In this document: positions 5,499-13,132 of the stretch, piece after piece
Position numbering within the stretch: position 1 is the stretch's first letter
Layout: every line of letters begins with the position of its first letter
From: Nisaea sp.
Lineage (GTDB): Bacteria; Pseudomonadota; Alphaproteobacteria; Thalassobaculales; Thalassobaculaceae
Assembly: GCF_017640745.1 (NCBI RefSeq)
Contig: NZ_JAEPQA010000003.1
Location: forward strand, 1 to 64,000
DNA length: 64,000 bases
Direction: 5' to 3'
Made by a program: the position numbers and the translations under genes
Notes under the pieces: model-generated
The model's input: only the letters and a program-made list of their open reading frames with translations
What the model was told of the DNA's origin: nothing
Databases searched by the model: none

Positions 5499-6437
5499 CT
5501 ATTTGGGCGGCGTGCCGTCGAACAGCAGGCTGCCTTCCCACATGCCTTGCCGGACCATTGCCGCGGTCTCGGCTTTCAGAGTGTCGGCGAAGATGCGGAC
5601 CGCGTTGGTTTCCGGCCGGGCGAGGGAGCGCACCAGCACCATCTTGCGGGTCACGGTCGGCGAACGGATCGCGATGGCGGAAAGCTCTCCCGCCTCCACC
5701 TGCGCATGCACCGCCGCGAGCGGCAGTACCGTGTAGCCGAGGCCGCGGACGACGAGGTCCTTCAGGGTCTGCAGCGCATCGGCCTCGACGATGACCCGGA
5801 GTGCGATGTCATGCTCGCGCGCCGCCGCCTCCAGCAGTTTGCGGAGCCCGTGGCGCGGGCCGGGCAGGATCAGCGGCCTGCCGGCGAGGGAGCGGAACTC
5901 GGCAGGCTCCGGTGTCGCAGCGGTTGGCGGACCGATCAGGTAGAGCGTTTCCTCGATCAGCGGCTCGGAGCGGACATTCAGCACCGCGCCGGTCTCGTAC
6001 ATCACGGCGAGATCGGCCTCGCCGCGCTGGATCATGTCGAGCAGGTAGCCGCTGAAGGCGGGCACGATGCGCAGCGTGACCTCGGGATAGTCGGTGAGGA
6101 AGCGTTCCGCGAGATGGCCTGCGATGACCTCTCCGACGGTCGGCGGCACGCCGAGGCTCACCGTGCCCTTTACCGCGTTGGCGTCGGAGGAGATCGCGGC
6201 GCGGGTATCCTCGACCATGCGGAGGATTGCCGTCGCCCGGTCGGCCAGCAGCTCTCCGGAGGGCGTCGGCATCATGCCGCGTCCGTGCCGGGTGAAGAGC
6301 GGGACCGATAGTTCCTCCTCCAGAAGCCGGATCTGCCGGCCGAGCGCGGGCTGGGCGATGTTGAGCCGTTCGGCCGCCCGGCTGAGGCTGCCGGTCTCGG
6401 CGACGGTGAGGAAGGTGCGCAGCTGCTTCAGATCCAT
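5499..6437 (-). CDS. LysR-family transcriptional regulator
   Basis: A 312-residue LysR-type regulator. The N-terminal winged helix-turn-helix covers residues 1-60 (MDLKQLRTFLTVAETGSLSR, then AAERLNIAQPALGRQIRLLE). A two-lobe effector-binding domain follows from about residue 90. It is divergent from the TPP decarboxylase/acyl-CoA operon beginning at 6545. The 107-base gap holds a palindrome with the exact LysR T-N11-A layout, so it most likely controls that operon in response to its substrate or an intermediate. The C-terminus converges on the katG terminator. Confidence 0.93.
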   Translation of the reverse strand: MDLKQLRTFLTVAETGSLSRAAERLNIAQPALGRQIRLLEEELSVPLFTRHGRGMMPTPSGELLADRATAILRMVEDTRAAISSDANAVKGTVSLGVPPTVGEVIAGHLAERFLTDYPEVTLRIVPAFSGYLLDMIQRGEADLAVMYETGAVLNVRSEPLIEETLYLIGPPTAATPEPAEFRSLAGRPLILPGPRHGLRKLLEAAAREHDIALRVIVEADALQTLKDLVVRGLGYTVLPLAAVHAQVEAGELSAIAIRSPTVTRKMVLVRSLARPETNAVRIFADTLKAETAAMVRQGMWEGSLLFDGTPPK

Positions 6438-6453
6438 TATCTATATAATCATG

Positions 6454-6476
6454 GCATATCTGAATAAGAAATATGC
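6454..6476. promoter_or_regulatory. LysR-type T-N11-A operator with adjacent -10 element
   Basis: GCATAT and ATATGC are perfect inverted arms separated by exactly 11 bases, giving the T-N11-A signature of LysR binding sites. A TATAAT hexamer stands just upstream at 6444-6449 within a smaller dyad (ATTAT-CTAT-ATAAT, 6436-6449) that touches the LysR start codon. The arrangement suggests control of both the regulator and the operon at 6545. Confidence 0.65.
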
Positions 6477-6544
6477 TTCTCGTATTTTGCTCGGCAGAGC
6501 CTTACTCAGGTGGAACCGACAATGATCGCGTCCGAGGAGGCGAG

Positions 6545-7081
6545 ATGAGCGCAGTTCCGGCCGAGAAGGCCCCGTCCTGGCAGGACCAGATCCTGCCGAT
6601 CCTGAAAAGCTTCGATGTCCGCCATCTGGTCTATGTGCCGGACGCGGGCCATGCCGCCGCGATCCGCGCCGCGGAACTCGACAACGGTATCGTCTCGCTG
6701 GCGCTGACCACCGAGGAGGAGGGCATCGGCTACCTGCTCGGCGCCCATCTCGGCGGCGAGCGGGGCGCGCTGCTGATGCAGTCGAGCGGCGTCGGCAACT
6801 GCCTCAACACGCTCGCGCTGCAGACCATGACGCGCTTTCCGCTGCTGATGCTGGTGACGATGCGGGGCGACTGGGCGGAGTTCAATCCGTGGCAGAACCC
6901 GATGGGGCAGGCAACGGAAGCGGCGCTGAAGCTGATGGGCGTCCGTACCTGGCGCGCCGACAAGCCGGAAGACGTGCCGCATCTGGTGCACGGCGCGGCC
7001 ACGATGGCCTTCAACGGGGATGAGGCGACGGCCGTTCTGCTCGGGCAGAGCCTCATCGGTGAGAAGAAGTGGGTGAAGTGA
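6545..7081 (+). CDS. TPP-dependent decarboxylase, alpha (PYR) subunit; sulfopyruvate/phosphonopyruvate decarboxylase-like
   Basis: A 178-residue PYR half of a thiamine-diphosphate enzyme, like ComD of sulfopyruvate decarboxylase or the N-terminal third of phosphonopyruvate decarboxylase. The cofactor-activating glutamate lies in LTTEEEGIGYLLGA (residues 55-68), followed by a typical ALLMQSSGVGNCLNTLA segment. The start is set by GGAGG at 6536-6540, four bases before the ATG; the longer reading frame back to 6473 would run through the operator. The stop overlaps the beta-subunit start (ATGA), implying a 1:1 complex. Substrate (a 2-oxo acid, possibly 3-sulfo- or 3-phosphono-pyruvate) is inferred from family only. 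Confidence 0.85.
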   Translation: MSAVPAEKAPSWQDQILPILKSFDVRHLVYVPDAGHAAAIRAAELDNGIVSLALTTEEEGIGYLLGAHLGGERGALLMQSSGVGNCLNTLALQTMTRFPLLMLVTMRGDWAEFNPWQNPMGQATEAALKLMGVRTWRADKPEDVPHLVHGAATMAFNGDEATAVLLGQSLIGEKKWVK

Positions 7082-7665
7082 TGGGCAAGCAACTCCTCGA
7101 CCGCCGCGCCGCCTCGGCGGCTCTCCTGCAGGACCGCGGCGACCTGCTCGTCGTCACCGGCCTCGGCTCGCCGAGCTACGATGCCATGGCCGCCGGCGAC
7201 AACGATCTCAACTACTATCTCTGGGCCGCCATGGGCAGCGCCGCGACGGTCGGTTTCGGCCTCGCCATGACCCAGCGGGACAGGCCGGTTCTGGTGCTGA
7301 CCGGTGACGGCGAGATGCTGATGGGCCTCGGCGCGCTTGCCTCGATCGGCCAGAAGCTGCCGCCGAACCTCACCATCGCGGTGCTCGACAACGGGCATTA
7401 CGGCGAGACCGGGATGCAGAAGAGCCATACCGGCAACGGGCTGGAACTGGCGCGTTTCGCCGAGGCGGCCAATTTCCCCTGGACCCGGGTGATCGAGGAC
7501 ATGGACGGTGTTGCCGCGCTGCGCACCCGCATGCACGAGAAGGCGGGCACCTCCTTCGCCGCTCTCAAGATCGGGTCGGACGAGCTGCCGCGCGTCCTGC
7601 CGTCGCGCGACGCGGTCCATGTGAAGAACCGTTTCCGGGCCGCCCTCGGCCATTCCACGATCTGA
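7081..7665 (+). CDS. TPP-dependent decarboxylase, beta (PP) subunit; ComE-like
   Basis: A 194-residue PP half of the same enzyme. The Mg2+/thiamine-diphosphate motif runs from GDG (residues 75-77) to Asn104 in LDNGHYGET, the usual GDG-X26-N spacing. Start overlaps the alpha-subunit stop. Separate PYR and PP chains are characteristic of sulfopyruvate decarboxylase (ComDE) and some phosphonopyruvate decarboxylases. The product would be an aldehyde, which fits the oxidoreductases later in the run. Confidence 0.85.
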   Translation: MGKQLLDRRAASAALLQDRGDLLVVTGLGSPSYDAMAAGDNDLNYYLWAAMGSAATVGFGLAMTQRDRPVLVLTGDGEMLMGLGALASIGQKLPPNLTIAVLDNGHYGETGMQKSHTGNGLELARFAEAANFPWTRVIEDMDGVAALRTRMHEKAGTSFAALKIGSDELPRVLPSRDAVHVKNRFRAALGHSTI

Positions 7666-7676
7666 GAGGAGAGGCC

Positions 7677-8834
7677 ATGTCTGCCGCCAACGAGTACCAG
7701 GACATCCGTGACGCCGTCCGCGCGCTCTGCGCCGAGTTTCCGCCCGAATATCACCGCGAGGTGGACGAAAAGCGCGGCTATCCGGAAGCCTTCGTCGACG
7801 CGCTGACCAAAGCCGGCTGGCTCTCCGCCATGATCCCCGAGGAATATGGCGGGTCGGGTCTCGGCCTTACCGAAGCCTCCATCATCATGGAGGAGATCAA
7901 CCGCGCGGGCGGCAATTCCGGCGCCTGCCACGGCCAGATGTACAATATGGGCACGCTGCTCCGGCACGGCTCGGAGGCGCAGAAGAAGCTCTACCTGCCG
8001 AAGATCGCGAGCGGCGAGTTGCGCCTGCAGTCCATGGGCGTCACCGAGCCGACCACCGGCACCGACACCACAAAGCTGAAGACCAAGGCGGAGCGCAAGG
8101 GCGACCGCTATGTGGTAAACGGGCAGAAGGTCTGGATTTCCCGCATCCAGCATTCCGACCTGATGATCCTGCTCGCGCGCACCACGCCGCTCGAGGAGGT
8201 GAAGAAGAAGTCGGAAGGCATGTCGATCTTTATCGTCGACCTGCACCAGGCGATTGGCAACGGCATGACCGTGCGCCAGATCCCGAACATGGTGAACCAC
8301 GAGACCAACGAGCTCTTCTTCGACAATCTGGAGATCCCGGCGGAGAACCTGATCGGCGAGGAGGGCAAGGGCTTTAAATACATCCTCGACGGGCTCAATG
8401 CCGAGCGCACGCTGATCGCTGCCGAATGCATCGGCGACGGCTACTGGTTCGTCGACAAGGCGGCCGCCTATGCCAAGGACCGCGTCGTCTTCGGGCGGCC
8501 GATCGGGCAGAATCAGGGCGTCCAGTTCCCGCTTGCCGAGGCGCATATCGAGATCGAGGCCGCGAACCTGATGCGCTACGAGGCCTGCCGCCTGTTCGAC
8601 GCGCACCAGCCCTGCGGCGCCCAGGCCAACATGGCGAAATACCTCGCCGCGAAGGCCTCCTGGGAGGCGGGCAACGCCTGCCTGCAGACCCATGGCGGCT
8701 TCGGCTTCGCCTGCGAATACGATGTCGAGCGCAAGTTCCGCGAGACCCGGCTCTACCAGGTGGCGCCGATCTCGACCAACCTGATCCTGAGCTACGTCGC
8801 CGAGCATATCCTCGGCCTGCCGCGTTCGTTCTGA
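7677..8834 (+). CDS. Acyl-CoA dehydrogenase family protein with displaced catalytic base
   Basis: A 385-residue flavoenzyme with full acyl-CoA dehydrogenase length. It has an N-terminal helical domain, a middle beta domain (SMGVTEPTTGTDTTKLKTKA, residues 119-138) and C-terminal helices with RKFRETRLYQVAPIST. At the position of the usual catalytic glutamate of medium-chain enzymes (YEGT) the sequence reads VAPIST, with no Glu. A glutamate at residue 243 (LNAERTLIA) sits where isovaleryl- and long-chain acyl-CoA dehydrogenases keep theirs, so it probably serves as the base. A GAGAGG ribosome site precedes it, 11 bases after the decarboxylase. Confidence 0.9.
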   Translation: MSAANEYQDIRDAVRALCAEFPPEYHREVDEKRGYPEAFVDALTKAGWLSAMIPEEYGGSGLGLTEASIIMEEINRAGGNSGACHGQMYNMGTLLRHGSEAQKKLYLPKIASGELRLQSMGVTEPTTGTDTTKLKTKAERKGDRYVVNGQKVWISRIQHSDLMILLARTTPLEEVKKKSEGMSIFIVDLHQAIGNGMTVRQIPNMVNHETNELFFDNLEIPAENLIGEEGKGFKYILDGLNAERTLIAAECIGDGYWFVDKAAAYAKDRVVFGRPIGQNQGVQFPLAEAHIEIEAANLMRYEACRLFDAHQPCGAQANMAKYLAAKASWEAGNACLQTHGGFGFACEYDVERKFRETRLYQVAPISTNLILSYVAEHILGLPRSF

Positions 8835-8848
8835 GGGGGGGCAACCTC

Positions 8849-9625
8849 ATGCACGCCCATTTCGTCCTCGCGCATCCGGAGCCTCAGTCCTACAACGCGC
8901 ATCTCGTTCGGTCCGGCGTCGAGGCGCTGGAGGCCGAGGGCTGGACCGCGACGGTCTCCGATCTCTACGCGATGGGCTTCGATCCGTCCGAACGGCCGGA
9001 GCATTTCGCCGACCCGCTGAACCCGGCGCGCTTCGACGTGCAGGCCGAGCAGCGTCACGCCTCGGCGAACGGTACCCTGCCGGAGCACGTGACGGCGGAA
9101 CTGGAGCGGATGGAAGCGGCCGACCTTCTGGTCCTCCAGTATCCGATGTGGTGGCATTTGCCGCCGGCAATGCTGAAGGGATGGATGGATCGGGTTTTTG
9201 CCTATGGCGAGGCCTATACCAGCACCAAGCGCTTCGAGAACGGGCGCTTTGTCGGCAAGCGGGCGATGCTGTCGGTGACGGTGGGGACCAGCCGCGAGAC
9301 CTACGAGCATGACGGGCGCAGCGGCGATATCGACTTGATGCTGTGGCCGGTCAATTTCTCCCTCGCCTATCTCGGTTACACGGTGCTCGATCATTTCGTG
9401 GCCTACGGCGTCGAGGCTGGGCTGAGATATTCGGACCCGGCTACGGTCGAGGCACGTCTGAAGAAAGTCGCCGAAGACTTCAAGATGACTTTGACCGGAC
9501 TCGACGGCCGGCCGGTGATCCCCTTCAACCGCAAGGCAGAGTGGGGCGAGGATGGCCGCATCGTTCCGGGGGCGCCGGTTTATTCGCCCTTCATCCGCCG
9601 CCGCCGCGAACTTGAGCTGGAGTAG
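8849..9625 (+). CDS. NAD(P)H dehydrogenase (quinone), flavodoxin-like fold
   Basis: A 258-residue FMN/FAD-binding NQO1/MdaB-type reductase. The N-terminal phosphate-binding turn is FVLAHPEPQSYNAHLV. The flavin-ring and dimer segment is VLQYPMWWHLPPAMLKGWMD near residue 90-110, followed by RVFAYGEAY. These enzymes carry out two-electron reduction of quinones or electrophiles. The ATG at 8849 follows GAGGGGGG; longer in-frame starts lie within the acyl-CoA dehydrogenase gene. It may accept electrons or detoxify an intermediate of the pathway (inference). Confidence 0.87.
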   Translation: MHAHFVLAHPEPQSYNAHLVRSGVEALEAEGWTATVSDLYAMGFDPSERPEHFADPLNPARFDVQAEQRHASANGTLPEHVTAELERMEAADLLVLQYPMWWHLPPAMLKGWMDRVFAYGEAYTSTKRFENGRFVGKRAMLSVTVGTSRETYEHDGRSGDIDLMLWPVNFSLAYLGYTVLDHFVAYGVEAGLRYSDPATVEARLKKVAEDFKMTLTGLDGRPVIPFNRKAEWGEDGRIVPGAPVYSPFIRRRRELELE

Positions 9626-9628
9626 TCC

Positions 9629-10741
9629 GTGACCGCAGGAACACTTCCCCTCAAGGGCCTGACCGTGCTCGCGCTGGAACAGGCGGTCGCGGCGCCGTTC
9701 TGCACCTCGCGGCTCGCCGATGCGGGCGCGCGGGTGATCAAGATCGAGCGGCCGGAGGGCGATTTTGCGCGCGGCTACGACGATGTGGCGAAGGGCCAGA
9801 GCAGCTATTTCGTCTGGCTCAATCGCGGCAAGGAATCGGTCGTGTTGAACCTCGCCGCGGACGATGGGAAAGAGGCGTTCCGCGAACTCGTCGCAGAGGC
9901 CGACGTGCTGGTGCAGAACCTGAAGCCGGGAGCTCTTGCCCGCCTCGGCTTTCCGGTCGAGGAATTGCGCCGGACCTATCCGAAGCTCATTACCCTCTCG
10001 ATCAGCGGCTACGGCGACGAGGGACCGCTTGCTGCGCGCAAGGCCTACGATCTGCTGATCCAGGCGGAGTCCGGGCTCTGCTCGGTGACCGGCGGTCCGG
10101 AGGAGCCGGCGCGGGTCGGTGTCTCCATCGTCGATATCGCGACCGGGCAGACCGCCCATGCCGCGATCCTCGAAGCGCTGATCGCCCGCTCGATTTCCGG
10201 GGAGGGGGCGGATATCCGGATCTCCATGTTCGACGTCATGGCGGACTGGATGACGGTGCCGCTGCTGAACCATGAGGGCGGCAAGTCGCCGAAGCGGCTC
10301 GGCCTCCGGCATCCTTCCATCGCGCCCTACGGCGTCTTCCCGACGGCGGACGGTCCCTCGGTCCTGATCTCGATCCAGAGCGAGCGGGAATGGGCGGTGC
10401 TCTGCCGCAAGGTGCTGGAAGACGAGGGTGCGATCACCGACCCGCGCTTCTCGACCAATGTCGCGCGGGTGCAAAACCGGGCGGAAACCGACGCGTTGGT
10501 GGGTGGCGTGTTCGGAAAGTTGCCGGTCGAGGCGCTGGAGGCGAAACTCGACGCAGCGGATATTGCCTTCGCGCGCGTCAACGATACCGGCGCGCTCTCG
10601 AGCCACCCGCATCTCCGCCGGATCACCGTGGACACGCCGAACGGTCCGGTTGCCTATCCGGCACCCGCCGCGATCTTTGTCGGTGCGGAGCGGGCTTACG
10701 GTCCGGTGCCGGCGGTGGGAGACGCGCCGGGGCTGTCCTAA
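9629..10741 (+). CDS. CaiB/BaiF family CoA-transferase
   Basis: A 370-residue family III CoA-transferase that moves CoA between carboxylic acids through aspartyl-anhydride/thioester intermediates. The start is GTG, 3 bases after the reductase stop. The conserved N-terminus GLTVLALEQAVAAPFCTSRL is present. Asp169 in VSIVDIATG corresponds to the catalytic Asp of formyl-CoA transferase. In this run it would activate a carboxylate for the acyl-CoA dehydrogenase. Substrate not identifiable. Confidence 0.9.
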   Translation: MTAGTLPLKGLTVLALEQAVAAPFCTSRLADAGARVIKIERPEGDFARGYDDVAKGQSSYFVWLNRGKESVVLNLAADDGKEAFRELVAEADVLVQNLKPGALARLGFPVEELRRTYPKLITLSISGYGDEGPLAARKAYDLLIQAESGLCSVTGGPEEPARVGVSIVDIATGQTAHAAILEALIARSISGEGADIRISMFDVMADWMTVPLLNHEGGKSPKRLGLRHPSIAPYGVFPTADGPSVLISIQSEREWAVLCRKVLEDEGAITDPRFSTNVARVQNRAETDALVGGVFGKLPVEALEAKLDAADIAFARVNDTGALSSHPHLRRITVDTPNGPVAYPAPAAIFVGAERAYGPVPAVGDAPGLS

Positions 10742-10790
10742 TTCCTCGGAGCCGCTAAGCTGCCTCCCAATCAAAATCGGGGGAAACGGC

Positions 10791-11681
10791 ATGAGCGGAA
10801 AACTGCGTGTGGGCTTCATCGGCGCCGGGCTGATGGGGCACGGCATGGCGAAGAATCTGGTCGAGAAGGGCTTTCCCCTGACGGTTATGGGGAACCGCAA
10901 CCGGCAGCCGATCGATCATCTGGTCTCGCTCGGGGCGATGGAAGCGACGACGCCCCGCGTCGTGGCCGAGGCGTCCGACATCGTCTTCCTCTGCCTGCCG
11001 AACTCGGCGGTGGTGGACAAGGTGGTCCTCGGACCGGGTGGAGTCGCCGAGGGCGCGCGCGAGGGCCTCATCGTCGCGGATTCGACCACGGCCGATCCGA
11101 TGGAGACGAAGCGCATCGGCGCTGCGCTGGCGGAAAAGCGTGTCCGGATGCTCGACACGCCGCTCACCATGACCCCGAAGGAGGCTGAGGCCGGGACGCT
11201 GAACGTGCTGGTTGGCGGCCCGGAGGAGGTTCTGGAGACGGCGCGCCCCGCCATCGCCTGTTTCGGCAGGAACATCTTCCATGTCGGGCCGCTCGGCGCC
11301 GCGCACAGTCTCAAGCTGATCAACAACTTCATGTCCATGAGCATGGTCGCGCTCTTCGCGGAGGCGGTGACGACCGCCCGCAAGGCGGGCGTCAGCGTGG
11401 AGGACCTGCACGAGCTGATCTCCGCCGGCGCGCTCAACAACGCGCTCTTCCAGAAGGTCATGGACTGGCCGCTGAAGGGCGATGCGAGCGGGCTGCAATT
11501 CGCCATCGAGAACGCGCTGAAGGACGTCTCCTATTACAACCGCGTCGCCGCGGATGCGGGGGCGACGGCCCCGATCGGTGCGACCGTGCAGCAGATCTAT
11601 GCCCTCGCCAATGCCCAGGGCGAGGGCAAGACCCATGTGCCGAAGCTGATGGACGTGCTCGGCCGCCTCAACGGTCTCTGA
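10791..11681 (+). CDS. NAD(P)-dependent beta-hydroxyacid dehydrogenase family (HIBADH-like)
   Basis: A 296-residue two-domain dehydrogenase of the 3-hydroxyisobutyrate/tartronate-semialdehyde reductase family. The Rossmann motif GFIGAGLMGHGMA is at residues 8-20, and the catalytic lysine is Lys175 with Asn179 in SLKLINN. The substrate-binding segment that usually reads DAPVSGG is here DTPLTMTPKEAEAGTL, so the carboxylate-binding Ser-Gly-Gly is missing and the substrate probably differs from 3-hydroxyisobutyrate. It ends the six-gene run from 6545. The 49-base gap before it is short enough for cotranscription. Confidence 0.87.
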   Translation: MSGKLRVGFIGAGLMGHGMAKNLVEKGFPLTVMGNRNRQPIDHLVSLGAMEATTPRVVAEASDIVFLCLPNSAVVDKVVLGPGGVAEGAREGLIVADSTTADPMETKRIGAALAEKRVRMLDTPLTMTPKEAEAGTLNVLVGGPEEVLETARPAIACFGRNIFHVGPLGAAHSLKLINNFMSMSMVALFAEAVTTARKAGVSVEDLHELISAGALNNALFQKVMDWPLKGDASGLQFAIENALKDVSYYNRVAADAGATAPIGATVQQIYALANAQGEGKTHVPKLMDVLGRLNGL

Positions 11682-12586: not shown

Positions 12587-13132
12587 TTGCAGACTGGAGA
12601 ACGGCCCGAACCGACCGGCAAGTCCCACCCGCGCACCACTGCCGTGATTGCCGCTGCCGCGAGCCTGCTGGCCTGCATGCTGTTCTTCGCCTTCGATGTC
12701 GTCTGGGATCTCCGGGAGCATCTGGGCGAAGGCAGCGGATACGGTACCGGGGAGTCCGTGCATCTGGCCTTCGAGATCCTGGCTGTCGTCGGGCTCGGCT
12801 ACGGTGCCTGGCTGCTCCGCGGCTATGTCGTCTTCCTGCGCCGCGAGACCGACCGGAACCAGCAGACCATCGCCTCGCTCAGAGGCAGTTTCGAGCAGGT
12901 CCTGTCGGAGAAGTTCGACGGCTGGAACCTGACGCCCGCCGAGAAGGACGTGACGCTCCTGATCATCAAGGGACTCAGCATCAACGACATCGCGGGCGCC
13001 CGGAACACCGCTCCCGGAACGGTGAAGGCCCAGTCCTCCTCGATCTTCCGCAAGATCGGCGTCTCGTCGCGCACCGAGCTGATGAGCAGCGTGCTGGACG
13101 AATTCATCGACGTCGCGAACGTGGAGACGTGA
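12587..13132 (+). CDS. Membrane-anchored LuxR-type transcriptional regulator
   Basis: A 181-residue protein with two hydrophobic helices (about residues 17-37 and 59-84), a short linker, and a LuxR/GerE helix-turn-helix at 113-170. The motif is LTPAEKDVTLLIIKGLSIND, with TVKAQSSSIFRKIGVSSR as the recognition helix. No receiver or autoinducer domain is present. The start is TTG, chosen because GGAGGA lies 4 bases upstream at 12577-12582. It should bind DNA while held at the inner membrane. Divergent placement 142 bases from the RTX gene suggests it may control it (inference). Confidence 0.83.
   Translation: MQTGERPEPTGKSHPRTTAVIAAAASLLACMLFFAFDVVWDLREHLGEGSGYGTGESVHLAFEILAVVGLGYGAWLLRGYVVFLRRETDRNQQTIASLRGSFEQVLSEKFDGWNLTPAEKDVTLLIIKGLSINDIAGARNTAPGTVKAQSSSIFRKIGVSSRTELMSSVLDEFIDVANVET

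What the first reader, a model, noticed from the sequence alone, without database searches (positions are those of the whole stretch)
6454..11681. LysR-controlled catabolic operon with ComDE-like decarboxylase and two altered active sites
Six adjacent same-strand genes: two-chain TPP decarboxylase, acyl-CoA dehydrogenase, quinone reductase, CaiB transferase, beta-hydroxyacid dehydrogenase. A divergent LysR gene has a perfect T-N11-A operator. The acyl-CoA dehydrogenase lacks Glu at the standard place (VAPIST) but keeps Glu243; the dehydrogenase replaces the SGG substrate motif with LTMTPK. No known pathway has exactly this set. A sulfonate or phosphonate route is one idea.
Basis: partly seen in the sequence, partly recalled or inferred. 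Interest (0 to 1): 0.62.

Follow-up and report, generated by a model that had tools for sequence, protein, structure and literature searches.

The report
Probable methylsuccinate-route operon with two-chain decarboxylase
A small set of bacterial genes, shared by many soil and marine bacteria, joins an untested two-chain decarboxylase to enzymes already known to break down methylsuccinate, which suggests an unrecorded route for eating methyl-branched relatives of glutamate.

Summary
The unit is not six genes. The conserved operon is lysR / tppA-tppB-acad-caiB; the quinone reductase is missing from the same place in the two nearest genomes, and the beta-hydroxyacid dehydrogenase is a separate neighbour.

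The acyl-CoA dehydrogenase is 82% identical to the enzyme at the PA0879 position of the Pseudomonas aeruginosa itaconate cluster, shown in 2025 to be (RS)-methylsuccinyl-C4-CoA dehydrogenase. Its 'altered' site (Glu243 kept, VAPIST) is invariant in 50 orthologues, so it is normal for this enzyme. CaiB is the itaconate/methylsuccinate CoA-transferase type.

In Bosea, Haematobacter, Frigidibacter and Pseudomonas the same decarboxylase sits with an aldehyde dehydrogenase, this dehydrogenase, CaiB, itaconyl-CoA hydratase and citramalyl-CoA lyase. Elsewhere it sits with aminotransferase, glutamate dehydrogenase, amino-acid oxidase and 5-oxoprolinase genes. Best reading: TppAB decarboxylates a methyl-branched 2-oxoglutarate to a methylsuccinate semialdehyde. 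This is inferred, not assayed.

Sulfonate and phosphonate routes are not supported. In the window's own genome no hydratase of the known type was found, so the end of the pathway there is open.

The parts
5499..6437 (-). LysR-type regulator gene, divergent
   Evidence: Pfam HTH_1 and LysR_substrate above cut-offs; divergent from tppA in the whole Thalassobaculaceae clade
6454..6476 (.). LysR operator GCATAT-N11-ATATGC (T-N11-A)
   Evidence: perfect inverted repeat; conserved or nearly so in relatives; about 1% of shuffles give one
6545..7081 (+). tppA: alpha chain (PYR domain) of two-chain TPP 2-oxo acid decarboxylase
   Evidence: TIGR03845 101 bits (cut-off 148), TPP_enzyme_N weak; E57, E59 and RGxxxE invariant in 107 relatives
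7081..7665 (+). tppB: beta chain (PP domain) of the same decarboxylase; start overlaps the tppA stop
   Evidence: TIGR03846 120 bits (cut-off 221), TPP_enzyme_C above cut-off; G75-D76 ... N104 invariant
7677..8834 (+). acad: orthologue of (RS)-methylsuccinyl-C4-CoA dehydrogenase (PA0879 type)
   Evidence: 82% identical over 382 aa to the protein at the PA0879 position; E243 and VAPIST invariant in 50 orthologues
8849..9625 (+). nqo: Flavodoxin_2 NAD(P)H quinone-reductase-like gene, accessory; absent from this place in the two closest genomes
   Evidence: recurs in the same pathway context in L044, L107, L186
9629..10741 (+). caiB: family III CoA-transferase, itaconate/methylsuccinate CoA-transferase (Ict) type
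   Evidence: 48% identical to the protein at the PA0882 (Ict) position, 70-71% to CaiB in acd-caiB-ich-ccl clusters; Asp169 invariant
10791..11681 (+). hibadh: beta-hydroxyacid dehydrogenase; neighbour, probably not part of the module
   Evidence: not linked to tppAB in most relatives; own orthologous group with LTMTPKEA

Best explanation
This is a LysR-controlled entry module of methylsuccinate-type catabolism. Steps: (1) TppA+TppB, a thiamine-diphosphate decarboxylase split into two chains, removes CO2 from a 2-oxoglutarate carrying a methyl branch (4-methyl-2-oxoglutarate most likely, 3-methyl possible) and leaves a methylsuccinate semialdehyde. (2) An aldehyde dehydrogenase, encoded beside tppAB in many relatives but elsewhere in this genome, makes methylsuccinate. 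(3) CaiB puts CoA on it. (4) Acad oxidises methylsuccinyl-C4-CoA to mesaconyl-C4-CoA and passes electrons to ETF. (5) In many relatives hydratase and lyase genes of the itaconate pathway then give citramalyl-CoA and finally acetyl-CoA plus pyruvate. Step 4 is well supported by a tested close homologue; step 3 by family and position; steps 1 and 2 are inferred from neighbours; step 5 is not demonstrated in the window's genome.
For: Acad is 82% identical to the protein at the PA0879 position of a P. aeruginosa cluster with the order ich-acd-VOC-prpD-ict-ccl-TRAP. PA0879 and the Cupriavidus necator enzyme were purified and shown to be (RS)-methylsuccinyl-C4-CoA dehydrogenases (PMC12290011), and growth data agree (PMC9875883). 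tppAB lies near an acd relative in 45 of 88 loci. On the tppAB tree the linkage needs at least 11 changes, 6 of them forced by strongly supported branches, so it is not one inherited block. Loci with tppAB-ALDH-acd-caiB-ich-ccl together or nearly so: Bosea, Haematobacter, Frigidibacter L057 and Pseudomonas BN102 L083; most of the set in Variovorax. Going the other way, of the plasmid records picked by acd similarity and read, Variovorax, Paracoccus yeei, Haematobacter and Bosea also carry tppAB within about 16 kb, while six others show none in the stretch read. Gene sets that would feed a 2-oxoglutarate-type acid lie beside tppAB: aminotransferase with three RraA genes in Pseudomonas and Burkholderia, glutamate-type dehydrogenase and 5-oxoprolinase in Bradyrhizobium, amino-acid-oxidase-like gene with 5-oxoprolinase in Ruegeria and Variovorax, hydroxyacid oxidase in Burkholderia and Sphingobium, NADP isocitrate dehydrogenase in Bosea, and an MFS transporter above the cut-off of the PRK10406 family (formerly annotated as 2-oxoglutarate permease, my knowledge).
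Against: No decarboxylase of this group has been assayed. The window's genome (97% complete) has no hit to itaconyl-CoA hydratase, only 32-36% matches to the lyase, no close copy of the linked aldehyde dehydrogenase (best 45%, another contig) and no crotonyl-CoA carboxylase/reductase above cut-off, so the chain is incomplete as found. About half of the tppAB loci show no acd within 9 kb (some are cut short by contig ends). The entry-enzyme evidence comes from relatives whose TppA is only 48-77% identical, and the substrate may differ between branches: the peanut-nodule Bradyrhizobium stretch (about 11 kb on either side of tppA) shows caiB and ich but no acd.
Confidence: 0.55

Rival explanations
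1. Same pathway, other branch of substrate: TppAB acts on 4-methylene-2-oxoglutarate or 4-hydroxy-4-methyl-2-oxoglutarate (parapyruvate) and makes itaconate or citramalate semialdehyde; acad then serves only a side substrate.
For: RraA/LigK-like genes (the family of 4-hydroxy-4-methyl-2-oxoglutarate aldolase) with an aminotransferase beside tppAB in Pseudomonas and Burkholderia. Bradyrhizobium peanut-isolate plasmid with glutamate-type dehydrogenase, ALDH, tppAB, caiB and ich but no acd in the stretch read. Parapyruvate forms chemically from pyruvate (PMC11951559).
Against: In the window and all nearest relatives acad is inside the operon directly behind tppAB while ich is absent; itaconate or citramalate would not need acad.
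Confidence: 0.25
2. Sulfonate or sulfinate route: TppAB is a sulfopyruvate or 4-sulfino-2-oxobutyrate decarboxylase and acad is a 3-sulfinopropionyl-CoA desulfinase with CaiB as its CoA-transferase.
For: TppA and TppB find sulfopyruvate decarboxylase models first; a family III CoA-transferase plus an acyl-CoA dehydrogenase is also the set-up of 3-sulfinopropionate breakdown (my knowledge); acad hits the desulfinase model.
Against: All scores far below cut-offs: 101 of 148, 120 of 221, 205 of 600 bits. Acad is 82% identical to the protein at the PA0879 position. Itaconate-pathway hydratase, lyase and ETF genes recur beside it; a desulfinase would not need hydratase or lyase. No Xsc or sulfite-handling gene showed up among the neighbours that were read.
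Confidence: 0.06
3. Phosphonate route: TppAB is a phosphonopyruvate decarboxylase.
For: Family resemblance; nearest solved beta chain is named putative phosphonopyruvate decarboxylase (9iz3).
Against: Model scores 49 and 88 of 312 bits; no PEP mutase, phosphonatase or phn gene among the neighbours read in the window.
Confidence: 0.04
4. A species-specific six-gene pathway in which nqo and hibadh carry out extra steps, for example hibadh reducing the semialdehyde instead of oxidising it.
For: All six genes lie on one strand with short gaps. hibadh also follows caiB directly in one congener. Nqo-like genes recur in this pathway context in L044, L107 and L186.
Against: nqo is missing in the two closest genomes; hibadh is unlinked in most relatives while tppAB-acad-caiB stays together.
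Confidence: 0.1

Closest known systems
Itaconate/methylsuccinate degradation cluster of Pseudomonas aeruginosa and Cupriavidus necator (PA0878-PA0883 type; PMC12290011, PMC9875883)
   Same: Orthologous methylsuccinyl-C4-CoA dehydrogenase (82%), CoA-transferase of the Ict type, LysR gene nearby, dependence on ETF expected
   Different: Adds a two-chain TPP decarboxylase; lacks hydratase, lyase, methylsuccinate isomerase and TRAP genes in the window; CaiB belongs to a shorter subgroup (48% to Ict)
Sulfopyruvate decarboxylase ComDE / phosphonopyruvate decarboxylase
   Same: Same fold family and split into PYR and PP chains; GDG...N and catalytic Glu kept
   Different: Well below curated cut-offs; partners point to carbon-only 2-oxo dicarboxylates
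3-Sulfinopropionyl-CoA desulfinase (Acd of Advenella)
   Same: Acyl-CoA dehydrogenase superfamily, works with a family III CoA-transferase (my knowledge)
   Different: 205 of 600 bits; the window enzyme keeps Glu243 and is a close relative of a tested dehydrogenase
(2S)-Methylsuccinyl-C1-CoA dehydrogenase of the ethylmalonyl-CoA pathway (6es9 by my knowledge)
   Same: Same reaction type
   Different: Acts on the C1 ester (PMC12290011), longer protein; only E = 1.4e-47 to the window protein; crotonyl-CoA carboxylase/reductase not above cut-off here

Membership tests
(RS)-methylsuccinyl-C4-CoA dehydrogenase (PA0879 type) | High identity to the tested enzyme | tested here: met
   82.5% over 382 aa to the P. 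aeruginosa protein at the PA0879 position; identity of that gene rests on its order, which matches PMC9875883
(RS)-methylsuccinyl-C4-CoA dehydrogenase (PA0879 type) | Same active-site residues | tested here: met
   E243 and APIST invariant in 50 orthologues
(RS)-methylsuccinyl-C4-CoA dehydrogenase (PA0879 type) | Activity on methylsuccinyl-C4-CoA | not testable with these tools
   needs the purified protein
Itaconate/methylsuccinate degradation pathway | Family III CoA-transferase of the Ict type | tested here: inconclusive
   48% to PA0882 type, 70-71% to CaiB of other acd-caiB-ich-ccl clusters; Asp169 kept
Itaconate/methylsuccinate degradation pathway | Itaconyl-CoA hydratase present | tested here: not met
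   no hit in the window's genome with two queries; a MaoC protein on C38 is not similar
Itaconate/methylsuccinate degradation pathway | Citramalyl-CoA lyase present | tested here: inconclusive
   three lyase-like genes at 32-36% identity on other contigs
Sulfopyruvate decarboxylase ComDE | TIGR03845 and TIGR03846 above curated cut-off | tested here: not met
   101.2 of 147.95 and 120.3 of 221.5 bits
Phosphonopyruvate decarboxylase | TIGR03297 above curated cut-off | tested here: not met
   49.1 and 87.7 of 312.5 bits
3-Sulfinopropanoyl-CoA desulfinase | NF042439 above curated cut-off | tested here: not met
   204.7 of 600 bits
TPP-dependent 2-oxo acid decarboxylase superfamily | Catalytic Glu in the PYR chain and GDG...N in the PP chain | tested here: met
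   E57/E59 and G75-D76...N104 invariant in 107 relatives

The most novel reading that the evidence does not exclude
TppAB with its aldehyde dehydrogenase is the missing natural feeder of methylsuccinate and itaconate: a widespread route by which proteobacteria break down methyl-, methylene- and hydroxymethyl-glutamates and 2-oxoglutarates, including plant non-protein amino acids such as the 4-methyleneglutamine of peanut (my knowledge) and alkyl-isocitrate products of TCA-type enzymes.
Probability: 0.35. Interest if true: 0.7.

Novelty: new variant of a known kind. Interest (0 to 1): 0.52.

Why it matters
[quoted passage not shown] A decarboxylase and aldehyde dehydrogenase repeatedly placed beside that dehydrogenase offer a testable source: branched 2-oxoglutarates, hence branched glutamates. 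It would also give a function to a large uncharacterised group of 'phosphonopyruvate decarboxylase'-named proteins.

Tried and rejected
Sulfonate, sulfinate and phosphonate routes: scores below cut-offs and wrong neighbours. Ethylmalonyl-CoA route for mesaconyl-CoA: no crotonyl-CoA carboxylase/reductase above cut-off. The MaoC protein on C38 near a second tppAB pair as a replacement hydratase: no similarity to itaconyl-CoA hydratase. hibadh and nqo as core genes: rejected by comparison of congeners. Paper searches for the TPP decarboxylase linked to methylsuccinate or to methyl/methylene-2-oxoglutarate catabolism found no paper on it. Structure prediction was not used: a model of either chain would not settle the substrate.
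Full report
WHAT IS THERE. The window lies in an alphaproteobacterial genome (G000, 4.5 Mb, 97% complete); the closest named records are Nisaea and Thalassobaculum. The genes of the finding are intact: lysR 5499-6437 (-), tppA 6545-7081, tppB 7081-7665, acad 7677-8834, nqo 8849-9625, caiB 9629-10741, hibadh 10791-11681. Upstream, on the far side of lysR, lies an unrelated katG.

THE OPERATOR IS REAL. Between lysR and tppA, at 6454-6476, is GCATATCTGAATAAGAAATATGC, two perfect 6-bp arms around 11 bases. The arms are perfect in several relatives and one base off in others. Shuffles of the intergenic region give a perfect site of this type in about 1%.

THE SIX-GENE UNIT IS NOT REAL. Two genomes of the same genus whose acad is 98% identical have acad followed directly by caiB. 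The quinone-reductase gene is not found in those two genomes at E 1e-20. hibadh follows caiB in one of them, is separated by an MFS gene in the other, is about 10 kb away in a third congener and is on another contig in Thalassobaculum. What stays together across Thalassobaculaceae is lysR / tppA-tppB-acad-caiB. Related nqo genes do recur in the same pathway context elsewhere: between tppA and tppB in L044 (59% identity), between acd and caiB in L107 (40%), and beside an oxidase, SDR and 5-oxoprolinase in Variovorax L186 (42%). The gene is therefore probably an accessory of the pathway, not a core step.

THE 'ALTERED' SITES ARE NORMAL FOR THEIR FAMILIES. In 50 acad orthologues of at least 75% identity, E243 and the stretch VAPIST-N are invariant; nine more distant ones also keep E243. 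Placing the catalytic base at this other position is known from isovaleryl-CoA and long-chain acyl-CoA dehydrogenases (my knowledge). LTMTPKEA in hibadh is shared, with small changes, by orthologues at 58-94% identity in this bacterial family.

WHAT ACAD DOES. The window protein is 82.5% identical over 382 residues to the acyl-CoA dehydrogenase of a P. aeruginosa cluster with the order MaoC hydratase, acyl-CoA dehydrogenase, VOC protein, MmgE/PrpD, CaiB, CoA ester lyase, TRAP transporter. This is the order reported for PA0878-PA0886 (PMC9875883). PA0879 and its C. necator counterpart were purified and shown to be (RS)-methylsuccinyl-C4-CoA dehydrogenases making mesaconyl-C4-CoA (PMC12290011). 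The assignment for the window is by close homology; the tested PAO1 protein itself was not in hand.

WHAT CAIB DOES. It is a family III CoA-transferase, 48% identical to the protein at the Ict (PA0882) position and 70-71% to the CaiB of Limimaricola, Rhizorhabdus and Paracoccus clusters of the form acd-caiB-ich-ccl. Asp169 is invariant. An itaconate/methylsuccinate CoA-transferase is the natural reading.

WHAT TPPAB DOES (INFERRED). Both chains belong to the sulfopyruvate/phosphonopyruvate decarboxylase group but score well below the curated cut-offs. In 88 loci with tppAB, 45 have an acd relative, 40 a caiB, 24 an ALDH, 18 an ich-like and 17 a ccl-like gene within the stretch held; a few loci are the same genome twice and some are cut short by contig ends. 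On a tree of 107 tppAB pairs the acd link needs at least 11 changes, 6 of them forced by starred branches; the tree is a quick one with several long branches. By chance an acd gene should fall within 9 kb in roughly 1% of genomes (my estimate from genome size). Bosea, Haematobacter, Frigidibacter L057 and Pseudomonas BN102 L083 hold a linear set: decarboxylase, aldehyde dehydrogenase, CoA-transferase, methylsuccinyl-CoA dehydrogenase, hydratase, lyase. Reading that set backwards, the decarboxylase product must become methylsuccinate after one oxidation, so its substrate is 4-methyl- or 3-methyl-2-oxoglutarate.

INDEPENDENT CLUES TO THE SUBSTRATE. Genes beside tppAB in different lineages would all yield a 2-oxoglutarate-type acid: an aspartate-transaminase-like gene with three RraA/LigK-like genes in Pseudomonas and Burkholderia; a glutamate-type dehydrogenase and 5-oxoprolinase genes in Bradyrhizobium from peanut; an amino-acid-oxidase-like gene, SDR and 5-oxoprolinase genes in Ruegeria and Variovorax; hydroxyacid oxidase in Burkholderia and Sphingobium; NADP isocitrate dehydrogenase and PrpD in Bosea; and a transporter above the cut-off of the PRK10406 family. 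These genes are common ones, and each is seen in few lineages, so this is supporting evidence only. The Bradyrhizobium stretch read, about 11 kb on either side of tppA, contains caiB and ich but no acd, which would fit a methylene (itaconate) branch; peanut is a known source of 4-methyleneglutamine (my knowledge; the papers held did not cover it). However, the plasmid collection may sample peanut Bradyrhizobium heavily (one search lists seven such records), so the host link may be a sampling effect.

WHAT IS MISSING HERE. The window's genome has no itaconyl-CoA hydratase hit with two different queries, only weak lyase relatives, no close copy of the linked ALDH and no crotonyl-CoA carboxylase/reductase above cut-off. 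The fate of mesaconyl-C4-CoA in this organism is unexplained: an unknown hydratase, release of mesaconate by CaiB, or a gap in the 97%-complete assembly.

VERDICT. A real, widely conserved four-gene operon; one of its enzymes is a close relative of an enzyme characterised in 2023-2025 and a second fits the same pathway, and its decarboxylase is an untested entry enzyme with a clear prediction. The sulfonate/phosphonate idea and the two 'altered sites' should be dropped.

Noticed in passing
window:8849-9625; L107:5434-6174; L044:3686-4457; L186:2226-3008: Flavodoxin_2 quinone-reductase-like genes recur in the tppAB/acd context in unrelated genomes, twice between acd and caiB, although the gene is absent there in the window's closest relatives.
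   Followed up: partly
window:10791-11681: The beta-hydroxyacid dehydrogenase belongs to an orthologous group of Thalassobaculaceae in which SGG is replaced by (L/V/M)TMTPKEA; in one genome (L163) it follows a 63%-identical acd paralogue. Its substrate is unknown.
   Followed up: partly
L157:8081-10322 (own genome, contig C5): A second acd (67%) plus caiB (53%) pair in the same genome, in a neighbourhood with a TctA transporter, DUF1611 and MR_MLE genes; the acd paralogue is conserved across the family.
   Followed up: partly
L166:5054-6158 (own genome, contig C38): A second tppAB pair (49% and 43%) with an isocitrate/isopropylmalate-type dehydrogenase, MFS, molybdopterin enzyme, MaoC protein and sulfatase nearby; another substrate is likely.
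   Followed up: partly
L180 (Bradyrhizobium guangxiense plasmid): Peanut-isolate plasmids carry tppAB with glutamate-type dehydrogenase, 5-oxoprolinase-like genes, ALDH, caiB and ich; a possible 4-methyleneglutamate breakdown set.
   Followed up: partly
L187 (Shinella), L183 (Paracoccus yeei): tppAB near tricarballylate dehydrogenase TcuA, and in Shinella also near aconitase, PrpD and tripartite tricarboxylate transporter genes, pointing to a tricarboxylate-derived 2-oxo acid in these lineages.
   Followed up: no
L137 (P. aeruginosa plasmid p2014S05-249-1): The whole itaconate/methylsuccinate cluster lies on an 847-kb plasmid typed as conjugative.
   Followed up: no
window:110-3062: ABC permease, DUF1028 gene and a DAO-type FAD oxidoreductase in a row upstream of katG; not seen beside the operon in relatives.
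   Followed up: partly
window:11701-12444: Gene for a protein with RTX calcium-binding repeats, followed by a LuxR-type (GerE) regulator gene at 12587-13132.
   Followed up: no
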